The notes beneath the pieces are model-generated. The model made no database searches. It saw only the letters and a list, made by a program, of their open reading frames with translations, and was not told the DNA's origin. From a bacterium (GTDB lineage Bacteria > Zixibacteria > MSB-5A5 > WJJR01), in contig JAKAKI010000002.1 of the NCBI GenBank assembly GCA_021813505.1, positions 1 to 37,609 on the forward strand: DNA of 37,609 bases, given 5' to 3'. This document shows positions 4,260 to 15,199 of this stretch, in pieces. Both the position numbers and the translations under genes were made by a program. Numbering within the stretch: the stretch's first letter is position 1; every line of letters starts with the position of its first letter.

Positions 4260-4883
4260 ATGGACGGTGAGATCGATTCACTTCTGCAAGTGACCTGCGG
4301 GGATGTGCCCCGAAGATTGCGCAACTCCAAGTACGCTGTCCGCCAGAATCGGTTCGGCCGGGGCATCTTCGCGACCAGTCCGATTGCGGCCGGGGAGACG
4401 GTGCTCCGTTTTCGCGGGCCGATCATCGATTTCGAGCGTTCCCGCAATCCGCGGTTCGAGTGTTTCTGTGTTCAAGTCGGCCCGAACAGCTACACGCTGA
4501 CCTGGGCGCCCGAGCGGTTCATCAATCACAACTGTAATCCCAATCTGGGATTCCAGGAGTCGCGCACGCTGCGGGCATTGCGACGGATCGAAGCGGGCGA
4601 GGAACTCACGTTCGACTACTCGACGTCGATGGCGGAAAATTCGTGGACCATGGAGTGTGGCTGCGAGTCGGCGAACTGCCGCCACGTGATCGGGGATTTC
4701 ATCGATCTGCCCCTCGAACTGAAGAACCGCTACCGCCTACTGGGCATTATTCCCGCATGGCTTTCTGAAGACTTTGAGAGACAACAAATTGAACTGCGGG
4801 CGAGGCGGCTGGTGCCGTTTCCCCCTCCCGGCAATGGGAATGGAAACGGGAACGGGAATGGTAACGGGAATGGTCATCATTAA
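4260..4883 (+). CDS. SET-domain protein with C-terminal Gly-Asn repeat tail (copy 1)
   Basis: Likely an S-adenosylmethionine-dependent protein-lysine methyltransferase. The 207-residue protein carries a compact SET domain at about 25-123: RFGRGIFAT (SAM-binding), RFINHNCNPN at 86-95 (the NHxCxPN motif) and GEELTFDYS at 113-121 with the catalytic-site Tyr. A post-SET-like C-G-C-E-S-A-N-C cluster (Cys133, 135, 140) follows, probably binding zinc with a SET-domain Cys. The C-terminus (191-205) is pure Gly-Asn dipeptide repeat ending in His-His, encoded by a GGNAAY hexamer repeat. The ATG at 4260 has only a weak ribosome-binding site; a TTG at codon 20 aligns with the preferred start of copy 2 and is an alternative. 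Copy 2 follows 317 bp downstream. The substrate is unknown. Confidence 0.85.
   Translation: MDGEIDSLLQVTCGDVPRRLRNSKYAVRQNRFGRGIFATSPIAAGETVLRFRGPIIDFERSRNPRFECFCVQVGPNSYTLTWAPERFINHNCNPNLGFQESRTLRALRRIEAGEELTFDYSTSMAENSWTMECGCESANCRHVIGDFIDLPLELKNRYRLLGIIPAWLSEDFERQQIELRARRLVPFPPPGNGNGNGNGNGNGNGHH
4830..4877 (+). repeat. Hexanucleotide GGNAAY coding repeat (Gly-Asn)n, copy 1
   Basis: Repeats of GGN AAY (GGCAAT, GGGAAT, GGAAAC, GGGAAC and so on) encode the Gly-Asn tail of the first SET protein. Synonymous variation between units suggests selection on the peptide rather than fresh slippage. Confidence 0.85.
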
Positions 4884-5200
4884 TATTCCCCTCTGCACGG
4901 CCCGCCAAAAAAACCGCTCGACAAATCTGACAAATAGCGTATATTTTTGACCAAATGGTTCGCCTGGTTATGACTCACATCTGCTCTTACAACGTTCATT
5001 GCCGCCTCGTGCACAGCCTCGACTGGGGTAACAAGTGCATTTGTACCGGGCGGGATGGGCGCGGCGTTCTGGCCTGACGGTCCAGACGCTACCACCTTTT
5101 TCCCGCAATGACTGCTGAACAGACGCTCCGGCGTCTTGTCTTTTCACATACACTCTTGGCAAACCTGTTTGGCCCCTCACTTCCGGGGCAGGAGAGAAAC
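4884..5200. other. Intergenic spacer between the two SET genes
   Basis: 317 bp (224 bp if the upstream ATG at 5108 is used). It includes an AT-rich segment near 4920-4960 unlike the flanking coding DNA. TTGACC followed 16 bp later by TATGAC (about 4948-4975) is a possible promoter for the second SET gene and cysK. No convincing gene or terminator was seen. Confidence 0.45.
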
Positions 5201-5878
5201 TTGATCGAGAATCCATTCATCGTGCGGCCACATCGATTCGGACGGGGTCTCTATGCCACCCGGCGGATCAAGGCGGGTGGTCTGGTGCTGCGGTTCCGCG
5301 GTCCGCTCATCGATTTTGAACGCTCACGCAATCCGCGGTTCGAGTGTTACTGCGTGCAAGTGGGGCCGAACAGCTACACGCTGACCTGGGCGCCAGAGCG
5401 GTTCATCAATCACAGTTGCGAGCCTAATCTCGGATTTCTGGATGACCGCGAACTGCGCGCGTTGCGCGCCATTCGCCAAGGGGAAGAGCTCACGTTCGAC
5501 TATTCCACATCGATGGCCGAGAATGCGTGGACAATGGAATGCCGCTGCGGCTCTCCCCGCTGCCGTCATCTGATTGGCGACTTTGTGGATTTGTCGGCGG
5601 ACCTCAGGACACACTACCGCGAATTGGGTATTGTTCCCGAGTGGCTTTCGCCGGATTTTGAACGTCAACAACTGGCGGCAAGATCCGGAGGGCGGATCCC
5701 CAACTGGTATCCCGGCAACGGGAACGGCAGGGGAAACGGGAATGGCAATGGAAATGGTAACGGCAATGGCAACGGACACGGGAAGACGGTCAGTGGTGGT
5801 GTCTCGTCGGATAATCCTCGTGTGCGATATATCGTAACTCTCAGACGCATGTCGAAGAAGTCAGGAGCATCCTCATGA
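5201..5878 (+). CDS. SET-domain protein with Gly-Asn repeat tail (copy 2)
   Basis: A paralogue of the preceding SET protein, nearly identical through the core: [28 protein letters not shown] and a C-R-C-x4-C post-SET cluster. It is a predicted SAM-dependent protein-lysine methyltransferase. The Gly-Asn tail is longer, with one Arg interruption, followed by about 30 further residues that overlap the cysK start. The TTG at 5201 is preferred: GGCAGGAG lies six bases upstream and similarity to copy 1 begins there. An in-frame ATG at 5108 would add 31 residues with no counterpart in copy 1 and no ribosome-binding site. The stop overlaps the cysK ATG by four bases (ATGA), so the two are probably translationally coupled. 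The target protein is unknown. Confidence 0.83.
5714..5779 (+). repeat. Hexanucleotide GGNAAY coding repeat (Gly-Asn)n, copy 2
   Basis: About eleven GGN AAY-type units, one with Arg instead of Asn, encode the low-complexity tail of the second SET protein. The unit number differs from copy 1, as expected for a length-variable repeat. Confidence 0.85.
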
Positions 5879-7263: not shown

Positions 7264-8325
7264 ATGTCAGATTGCGACCAGCCCCAATCTCAGGGACTGA
7301 CCCGTTTTGCCACTGCCGGCGGGTGAGCGGCAAAGATGGGTCCGGTGGACCTTTATGAGATTGTTCGGAACTTGAATGTCCCGATGCCGCCCGAGGTGTT
7401 GGTCGGGCTGCAGACATCGGATGACGCCGGGGTCTATAAGATCGGTCCGGATCTGAATCTGGTCCTGACGGCCGATTTCATCGCGCCGACGTGTGACGAT
7501 CCCTACCTGTATGGGCGGATCGCGGCCGCCAATTCGCTGTCGGATGTCTATGCCATGGGGGGGGTGCCGAAGGTGGCGCTCAATCTGTGCTGTTTCCCGG
7601 CACGGGGAGTCGACAAGAGCGCGCTGACCGAAATCTTGCGCGGGGGTCTGGATGCCATCACCGAGTCCGGTGCGGTGCTGATCGGCGGACACACGGTCAA
7701 AGATAACGAACTGAAGTATGGGCTCTCGGTGACCGGAGTCGTGCGGGACGCGGATATCAAGACCAACGCGGGAGCGCGCGCCGGCGATCTTCTAATTCTC
7801 ACCAAGCCGATCGGCACCGGCGTGGTCATGAGCGCGCAGAAAAGCGGCCTGATCACCGAAGGTGAAGCGATGCCGGTCTTGGAACGGATGGCGCAACTTA
7901 GTAAGACGGCGGCGGGGCTGATGAATCAGTTCGGCGCGCATGCGGCGACTGATATCACCGGGTTCGGTCTGGCCGGGCACGCGCTGGAAGTCGCGTCTGC
8001 CAGCAAAGTCGGGGTGCGCTTTCAGGCGGGGAAAGTTCCCCGGTGGCCACTGGCGGTACAGTTGGCCCAGAAGGGCGTGAAGACCGGAGTGAAGCTGGCC
8101 GAGGGGAAGCCGGGGGACGAGAAAGTTGTCTTCGGCGATGCAATGAGCGCAGAGGAACGGATGCTCTATTTCGATCCGCAAACTTCGGGTGGCCTGTTGA
8201 TTTCGATTGCGCCAAAGGATGCCAACCGGCTCTTGCAGGCGCTGGCCGACGCGGGCATCGCCGATGCCGCCATCTGCGGTGAGGTGTTTGCGAGCGAGCG
8301 GGCGCGTGTGGAGGTCGAAGCGTGA
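7264..8325 (+). CDS. selD: Selenide, water dikinase, predicted selenoprotein (Sec at codon 21 = TGA)
   Basis: Makes selenophosphate from selenide and ATP, the selenium donor for selenocysteine and selenouridine synthesis. The body is classic SelD: KMGPVDLYEIV, TSDDAGVY, LTADFIAPTCDDPYLYGRIA, AAANSLSDVYAMGG, IGGHTVKDNELKYGLSVTG, and the ATDITGFGLAGHALE motif near the C-terminal lobe. An apparent ATG at 7336 would lack the essential N-terminal loop. Reading upstream in frame gives MSDCDQPQSQGLTRFATAGG, then TGA at 7324-7326, then AAKMGPVDL. The family motif there is GG[C/U]-A/G-A/G-K, so the TGA sits exactly at the catalytic Cys/Sec position. The true product is therefore about 353 residues with Sec21. 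A weak GAG precedes the ATG at 7264 by seven bases. The call implies that selA, selB and a tRNA-Sec exist elsewhere in the genome. Confidence 0.93.
7327..7356 (+). promoter_or_regulatory. Candidate bacterial SECIS hairpin downstream of the selD UGA
   Basis: Just after the UGA at 7324-7326 the mRNA can fold GGUCC (7339-7343) with GGACC (7347-7351) around a GGU loop that begins 18 nt after the UGA. AAA (7332-7334) pairs with UUU (7352-7354) around a GAUG bulge containing a U. A short apical loop with G residues and a bulged U at this distance is the known bacterial SECIS arrangement recognised by SelB. It was folded by eye only. Confidence 0.6.
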
Positions 8326-8352: not shown

Positions 8353-8427
8353 GTGGAGGGCGAGGCTCCTGCCGAGCCTTGTTTCCGCGCGGAATCAAGG
8401 CTCGGCAGGAGCCTCGCCCTCCCACGC
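8353..8427. repeat. Long palindromic repeat (about 26-bp arms)
   Basis: Arms beginning GGAGGGCGAGGCTCC and CAAGGCTCGGCAGGAGCC are reverse complements over about 26 bp, separated by about 14 bp. A degenerate copy lies at 14589-14664. It sits directly behind selD and overlaps the annotated 5' end of the DUF1015 gene. It is probably a dispersed, non-coding mobile-type repeat that may also work as a transcription barrier. Confidence 0.82.
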
Positions 8428-14588: not shown

Positions 14589-14664
14589 GAGGAGCGGGCG
14601 AGGTTCCGGCCGCGCCTTTTTGCCGCGCGAAAAAAGAGGCTCGGCAGGAGACTCGCCCTCCCAC
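14589..14664. repeat. Degenerate copy of the long palindromic repeat
   Basis: The right arm, GAGGCTCGGCAGGAG-ACTCGCCCTCCCA, matches the arm at 8353-8427. The left arm is degraded (GAGCGGGCGAGGTTCC). The shared arrangement, including a central GCGCG-containing spacer, shows a dispersed repeat family in this genome. Confidence 0.75.
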
Positions 14665-14743
14665 CTGCCGGTGCTCATTGGATAACCTGAAGAAGTATCA
14701 CTTGATCGAGTGCCGGATGAAGTTTACCATCGTGCGAATTGAA

Positions 14744-14797
14744 TTGGGGATGGAGTCCCCCCTTGACCGCCGACTTGGCTGATGACTCCTGCAGCGC
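14744..14797 (+). promoter_or_regulatory. Fluoride riboswitch (crcB motif)
   Basis: The segment holds GGGGATGGAGTCCCC, matching the first stem-loop consensus (GGNGAUGGNGUUCNCC-like), then CCGCC and the hallmark GGCTGATGACTCCTGC. It lies about 30 nt ahead of the crcB GTG. In characterised cases the aptamer binds fluoride through Mg2+ ions and switches on the downstream fluoride exporter. The 3' part, GAGTTCGGCCGAGGGAGGAAG, includes the ribosome-binding site, so control of translation is plausible. Confidence 0.88.
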
Positions 14798-14827
14798 ATA
14801 GAGTTCGGCCGAGGGAGGAAGTGGTCA

Positions 14828-15199
14828 GTGAATATCGTTTACGTTGCAGTTGGAGGGATGCTGGGTGCGGTGGCGCGCTACGTGCTTGGCGGGCTGATAC
14901 ATCGCGCCTATCCGGGGACATTCCCATTGGGAACGCTGGTGATCAATGTACTCGGGTGCATTGTGATCGGCCTGCTCACGACCCTCGCCGATGATCGTGG
15001 AGTGCTTTCGCCGCAAATGCGGCTCTTCCTGTTCATTGGAGTACTCGGAGGATTCACGACGTTTTCAACGTTTGGGTATGAGACATTTGCACTCCTGCGG
15101 GATGGCTGGTTTCGTGCGGCCATCACGAACATGCTGGCCAATGTGGTACTGGGGTTGGGCGGAGTCTGGCTGGGGCACATCGGTGCCCGGCTTTTGTGA
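14828..15199 (+). CDS. crcB: Fluoride ion exporter CrcB/FluC
   Basis: A 123-residue four-helix membrane protein that forms a dual-topology dimeric fluoride channel. It starts GTG AAT ATC with GGGAGGAAG upstream. Family signatures include GGMLGAVARYVLGG, FPLGTLVINVLGC with the conserved Asn of the pore, and GVLGGFTTFSTFGYET with the phenylalanine-box and Na+-site region. Four hydrophobic segments are visible. The fluoride riboswitch just upstream and the DUF190 gene 9 bp downstream support the call. A single crcB gene implies a homodimer. Confidence 0.96.
   Translation: MNIVYVAVGGMLGAVARYVLGGLIHRAYPGTFPLGTLVINVLGCIVIGLLTTLADDRGVLSPQMRLFLFIGVLGGFTTFSTFGYETFALLRDGWFRAAITNMLANVVLGLGGVWLGHIGARLL

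What the first reader, a model, noticed from the sequence alone, without database searches (positions are those of the whole stretch)
7264..7356. Hidden selenocysteine codon: SelD is itself a selenoprotein
A standard translation starts selD at 7336 and loses the catalytic loop. Upstream the frame continues to an ATG at 7264 through a single TGA at 7324-7326, placed exactly where SelD proteins have their catalytic Cys or Sec (GG-x-A-A-K). A GGU-loop hairpin lies 18 nt downstream. This shows the lineage uses selenocysteine, so other proteins in this genome may have been truncated by gene calling.
Basis: partly seen in the sequence, partly recalled or inferred. Interest (0 to 1): 0.75.

Follow-up and report, generated by a model that had tools for sequence, protein, structure and literature searches.

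The report
Selenium-making enzyme SelD contains selenocysteine
The enzyme that activates selenium in this uncultured bacterium carries selenium itself, at a UGA codon that normal gene calling reads as a stop; the genome holds the full machinery and a second such gene (formate dehydrogenase), so the reading is right, though enzymes of this kind are well known.

Summary
The observation and its interpretation both hold. The frame runs from ATG 7264 through one TGA (7324-7326) to 8325 and gives a full-length SelD (TIGR00476, 341.6 bits) with the TGA at the catalytic Cys/Sec position. The same genome (Candidatus Zixiibacteriota MAG, 97% complete) has tRNA-Sec(UCA), selA and selB side by side on one contig. 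In the class, all 77 distinct stand-alone SelD loci read have TGA at exactly this codon. The 15 SelD domains that lack it have TGC/TGT there; all are cysteine desulfurase-SelD fusions. The GGU-loop hairpin meets all four published bSECIS rules. It is not significant on its own but is clear across relatives: stem 6.7 bp against 1.06 ± 0.49 in synonymous shuffles, with compensatory changes. A second gene hidden by UGA was found: formate dehydrogenase-N alpha, with its own GGUCU-loop hairpin. Sec-containing SelD is well known, so this is a new member, not a new kind. The least expected by-product: the hairpin sits at three different distances from the UGA in this class, following the SelD tree.

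The parts
7264..8325 (+). selD, full length, 353 residues with Sec at position 21, terminal TGA stop at 8323-8325
   Evidence: translation; TIGR00476, 341.6 bits against cut-off 125; 94% identical in same genus; 53-65% in the same family and order
7324..7326 (+). UGA codon read as selenocysteine (Sec21), at the catalytic Cys/Sec position of SelD
   Evidence: TGA in all 77 distinct stand-alone SelD loci; TGC/TGT in 15 fusion SelD domains
7338..7352 (+). bSECIS hairpin: stem GGGUCC/GGACCU, apical loop GGU (7344-7346), 17 nt between UGA and loop
   Evidence: meets the four-rule bSECIS model quoted in PMC13188914
7254..7259 (+). possible weak ribosome-binding site GAGTGA, 4 nt before ATG 7264
   Evidence: read directly from the sequence; not tested
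7336..7338 (+). internal ATG (Met25) at which a standard gene caller starts the truncated ORF
8323..8325 (+). second TGA of the same gene, used as an ordinary stop; homology to relatives ends at residues 351-353

Best explanation
selD at 7264-8325 encodes a selenophosphate synthetase that is itself a selenoprotein. UGA at 7324-7326 is decoded as selenocysteine by SelB with Sec-tRNA(Sec), directed by the hairpin at 7338-7352. Sec21 (with Lys24) lies in the flexible N-terminal loop that handles selenide, and the enzyme makes selenophosphate for SelA. Its product is therefore needed for its own synthesis. No selenouridine synthase was found, so in this genome its known clients are SelD itself and formate dehydrogenase-N. 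Shown here: frame, homology, codon conservation, hairpin conservation and covariation, presence of the decoding genes, second UGA gene. Inferred: actual Sec insertion and catalysis by Sec21.
For: Full-length SelD only if the TGA is read through. tRNA-Sec with UCA anticodon, 68.4 bits; selA 490 bits; selB 324 bits; adjacent on contig C61. 77 of 77 distinct stand-alone SelD loci in the class have TGA at this codon; 15 of 15 fusion SelD have a Cys codon. Hairpin stem in the window's clade 6.7 bp against 1.06 +/- 0.49 in 1000 synonymous shuffles (maximum 3.2), while Cys controls give 1.6 against 1.3. Nine cells with both sides changed, covariation 0.298 against 0.152 shuffled (0/500), and the signal falls when the helix is slid. 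FdhA: TIGR01553 1283 bits, UGA in QARI-U-HSSTVA, hairpin with GGUCU loop 18 nt after the UGA. selA over cut-off in 86 of 98 relatives. No ybbB.
Against: No expression or mass-spectrometry data. The hairpin in the window sequence alone is not better than chance (best-stem p = 0.25). A few relatives with Sec-SelD show no full selA (for example G005, G074, G002, G090). MAG gaps are likely, but G005 is rated 100% complete. SelD function is assigned by homology only.
Confidence: 0.97

Rival explanations
1. The gene starts at the internal ATG 7336 and makes a shorter SelD; the upstream frame and TGA are incidental.
For: This is the longest ordinary ORF.
Against: Upstream residues are conserved in many genera, with the TGA at one codon in all 77 loci; the catalytic Cys/Sec would be missing; solved SelD aligns across this loop.
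Confidence: 0.01
2. TGA is a sense codon throughout this genome (Trp or Gly), so the readthrough is not selenocysteine.
For: Codes with TGA as Trp or Gly exist in other bacteria (general knowledge).
Against: The same gene ends at a TGA (8323-8325) where homology stops; the genome has tRNA-Sec, selA and selB; TGA aligns with Cys, not Trp or Gly, in homologues. The families tested in this genome show in-frame TGA only at known Sec sites.
Confidence: 0.005
3. The TGA is a sequencing or assembly error, or selD is a pseudogene.
For: The window is from a metagenome-assembled genome.
Against: Independent assemblies of other genera carry the same TGA; the rest of the frame is open and conserved.
Confidence: 0.005
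4. The UGA is only partly recoded, and termination there is a selenium-sensing switch: low selenium gives a 20-residue stub, high selenium gives SelD (autoregulation). This would add to, not replace, the best explanation.
For: The gene's product is needed for its own decoding; [quoted passage not shown]
Against: No evidence here for regulation; the dependence may be an unavoidable side effect.
Confidence: 0.3

Closest known systems
Sec-containing SelD / SPS2 selenoprotein family (TIGR00476)
   Same: Same fold family, Sec in the N-terminal UxxK loop, in-frame UGA, bacterial SECIS right after it
   Different: Nothing in mechanism; a new lineage member (Zixiibacteriota), where no stand-alone Cys form was seen in the genomes read
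Cysteine desulfurase (NifS)-SelD fusions (Geobacter FRC-32 and a few others; PMC2398784, PMC4561486)
   Same: SelD domain with homologous loop; 15 such fusions found in the same class
   Different: The window's protein is stand-alone and carries Sec; the class's fusions carry Cys (GCACK), and 9 of the 15 genomes have both forms
Escherichia coli type bSECIS (formate dehydrogenase genes)
   Same: Small hairpin directly after UGA with GGU in the loop; the genome's own fdhA hairpin has a GGUCU loop
   Different: The selD hairpin has a three-base GGU loop and no E. coli-like primary sequence (comparison with E. coli from general knowledge)

Membership tests
SelD (selenide, water dikinase) | Match over curated family cut-off, full length | tested here: met
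   TIGR00476 341.6 bits against 125; residues 12-319 on profile 2-310 of 311
SelD (selenide, water dikinase) | Cys or Sec plus Lys in the N-terminal loop (UxxK/CxxK) | tested here: met
   GG-U21-AAK24, aligned with the loop of solved SelD 2yye
SelD (selenide, water dikinase) | Selenophosphate synthesis activity | not testable with these tools
   needs assay
Bacterial selenoprotein gene | In-frame UGA aligned with Cys in homologues | tested here: met
   TGA in 77 loci, TGC/TGT in 15 homologous fusion domains
Bacterial selenoprotein gene | bSECIS: loop 3-9 nt and stem 4-16 bp | tested here: met
   loop 3 nt, stem 6 bp (rule from PMC13188914)
Bacterial selenoprotein gene | bSECIS: G in first two loop positions | tested here: met
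   loop GGU
Bacterial selenoprotein gene | bSECIS: 16-37 nt between UGA and loop | tested here: met
   17 nt; relatives 17-18, 20 and 32-33 nt
Bacterial selenoprotein gene | bSECIS: MFE at or below -7.5 kcal/mol | tested here: met
   -7.9 kcal/mol; only just
Bacterial selenoprotein gene | tRNA-Sec, SelA and SelB in the genome | tested here: met
Bacterial selenoprotein gene | Sec shown in the protein | not testable with these tools
   needs mass spectrometry or selenium labelling

The most novel reading that the evidence does not exclude
Within one orthologous gene of one bacterial class, the SECIS hairpin has moved along the mRNA several times. The loop starts 17-18, 20 or 32-33 nt after the same UGA, the position follows the SelD tree, and some genes carry stems at two positions (for example L053, L041), as if the element relocates through two-hairpin intermediates while the protein loop stays conserved.
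Probability: 0.5. Interest if true: 0.45.

Novelty: new member of a known kind. Interest (0 to 1): 0.3.

Why it matters
It corrects the annotation of selD and of a formate dehydrogenase in this genome and shows that Sec decoding is widespread in a candidate phylum for which the open literature searched holds no Sec report. Any metabolic reconstruction of Zixiibacteriota made with standard gene calling will lose the catalytic loop of SelD and split formate dehydrogenase. The class-wide set (77 Sec and 15 Cys SelD) is a usable natural experiment on how a coding-region SECIS element moves and on how Sec is exchanged for Cys.

Tried and rejected
Whole-region MFE of the 61 bases from the UGA: not significant. 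MFE z-scores against synonymous shuffles for all relatives: Sec group mean -1.0, Cys group -0.57, p = 0.27, too blunt; replaced by a register-specific stem test. Other selenoprotein candidates in the genome: AhpC/TSA peroxiredoxin family (9 matches), CMD/AhpD, FlpD, HdrA2: none with an in-frame TGA. Selenouridine synthase ybbB: not found. The idea that the class's Cys forms were NADH dehydrogenase-SelD fusions was rejected on inspection: they are cysteine desulfurase fusions. The register groups +23 and +36 were partly defined by their own stems, so only the window's clade (a 13-row clade in the tree) and the Cys controls are clean tests.

Full report
Observation. The coordinates given are right. 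In bacterial code the longest ORF is 7336-8325 (329 aa). Reading one TGA at 7324-7326 extends it to ATG 7264 and gives MSDCDQPQSQGLTRFATAGG-U-AAKMGPVDLYEIV... The full product matches TIGR00476 (selD) with 341.6 bits against a cut-off of 125, from profile position 2, and aligns through the loop with a solved SelD structure that has Cys at this place (2yye). A genome-wide search with the family gives the window copy as the only SelD over the cut-off and notes one TGA inside it. The next matches are weak.

Decoding machinery. In the window's own genome (95 contigs, 3.89 Mb, 97% complete) tRNA-Sec is at C61:10340-10433 (68.4 bits, over the gathering score; ARAGORN calls tRNA-SeC with anticodon tca), selA at C61:8954-10279 (490 bits) and selB at C61:6809-8662 (324 bits), on one strand in the order selC-selA-selB. 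The window is on another contig (C11). ybbB (selenouridine synthase) was not found. The closest public contig (94% protein identity) is named Candidatus Zixiibacteriota.

Conservation. SelD was sought in 98 genomes. For 94 loci the residue aligned with position 21 was read directly; removing two duplicates leaves 92: 77 TGA and 15 TGC/TGT. Every stand-alone SelD read has TGA; every Cys case is a 734-866 residue fusion of a cysteine desulfurase (LDYNATTP/LDHNATTP motif; PF00266 in the one scanned) with SelD. The fusions form one clade (support 100). The window's gene ends at an ordinary TGA (8323-8325), so UGA has two meanings within one gene. selA is over its cut-off in 86 of 98 genomes.

SECIS hairpin. 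GGGUCC-GGU-GGACCU at 7338-7352 meets the four rules of the published bSECIS model (loop 3-9 nt with stem 4-16 bp, G in the first two loop bases, 16-37 nt from UGA, MFE at or below -7.5; PMC13188914): 3 nt, 6 bp, GGU, 17 nt, -7.9 kcal/mol. Alone it is not significant. In the 13-member SelD clade of the window the stem at this register averages 6.7 bp against 1.06 +/- 0.49 (maximum 3.2) in 1000 shuffles that keep each protein and its codon usage; the Cys fusions at the same register give 1.6 against 1.3. On the gapless alignment, three pairs change on both sides (for example G-C to A-U in three sequences, U-A to C-G in one), 9 such cells against 2.7 +/- 1.4 shuffled, covariation 0.298 against 0.152, and the values fall when the helix is slid by one column.

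Movement of the hairpin. Elsewhere in the class the stem stands at other registers: counted from the first base of the UGA (offset 0) the loop starts at offset 20-21 (17 loci), 23 (38 loci) or 35-36 (16 loci, plus 3 with stems at both 20 and 36); 3 loci have only imperfect stems. The label follows the SelD tree (10 changes for six labels against 48 in shuffles). This is the least expected result, but the groups other than the window's were partly defined by the stems themselves, and no function was tested.

A second hidden selenoprotein. A search with the molybdopterin oxidoreductase family found a frame of about 1015 residues at G000:C5 (L116) interrupted by one TGA. It is formate dehydrogenase-N alpha (TIGR01553, 1283 bits against 814). 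The TGA is codon 189 of the frame, in YLEHQARI-U-HSSTVAGLAASFGRGAMTN, which aligns with formate dehydrogenases named selenocysteine-containing in the PDB. It is followed, 18 nt on, by a 7-bp hairpin with loop GGUCU, and an iron-sulfur subunit frame follows. Peroxiredoxin-type, CMD, FlpD and HdrA2 families had no TGA. So SelD is not the sole client of its own product.

Mechanism. From established knowledge of the family (PMC13188914): SelB with GTP and Sec-tRNA(Sec) binds the hairpin and delivers Sec at the UGA; SelD makes selenophosphate from selenide and ATP, with Sec/Cys in a flexible N-terminal loop; SelA uses selenophosphate to make Sec-tRNA. The SelD here is needed for its own translation. 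The genome has no second, Cys-type SelD copy to start this loop, whereas 9 of the 15 relatives with a Cys fusion have both forms. How the loop starts is not shown; inheritance of the enzyme is the simplest idea (inference).

Known or new. [quoted passage not shown] The only paper in the library that joins Zixibacteria with selenocysteine does so in passing, about other bacteria. Verdict: true, a new member of a known kind, useful for annotation, modest in surprise.

Noticed in passing
L095-L109 (relatives): Cysteine desulfurase-SelD(Cys) fusions occur in 15 of 98 genomes of the class and form one clade; the two papers found in the library searched report only a handful of NifS-SelD fusions (PMC2398784, PMC4561486). 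Nine of the 15 genomes also keep a stand-alone Sec-SelD.
   Followed up: partly
L116 (G000:C5, minus strand): Formate dehydrogenase-N alpha with in-frame UGA at codon 189 and a GGUCU-loop hairpin: a second gene that standard calling would split.
   Followed up: yes
L021-L114 (relatives): The SECIS hairpin of selD stands at three distances from the UGA in different clades; some genes have stems at two of them.
   Followed up: partly
L022-L024, L037-L039, L043-L049 and others: Many of the more distant Sec-SelD have a CxxU motif (SCAG-U-ASK), reported as about 5.6% of single-domain Sec-SelD in marine data (PMC2398784); the window's clade lacks it.
   Followed up: no
window 14737-14798: Fluoride riboswitch (RF01734, 50.1 bits) just upstream of a crcB-like ORF at 14828.
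   Followed up: no
window 8355-8422 and 14638-14661: A 34-nt palindrome (97% complementary arms, no spacer) right after selD, with one arm repeated at 14638: probably a dispersed repeat or strong terminator.
   Followed up: partly
window 4260-4883 and 5108-5878: Two neighbouring, similar SET-domain proteins with C-terminal glycine-asparagine repeats (GNGNGN).
   Followed up: no
G005 and other relatives: Some genomes with Sec-SelD show no selA match (G005, rated 100% complete; G074): incomplete MAGs or a diverged selA.
   Followed up: no
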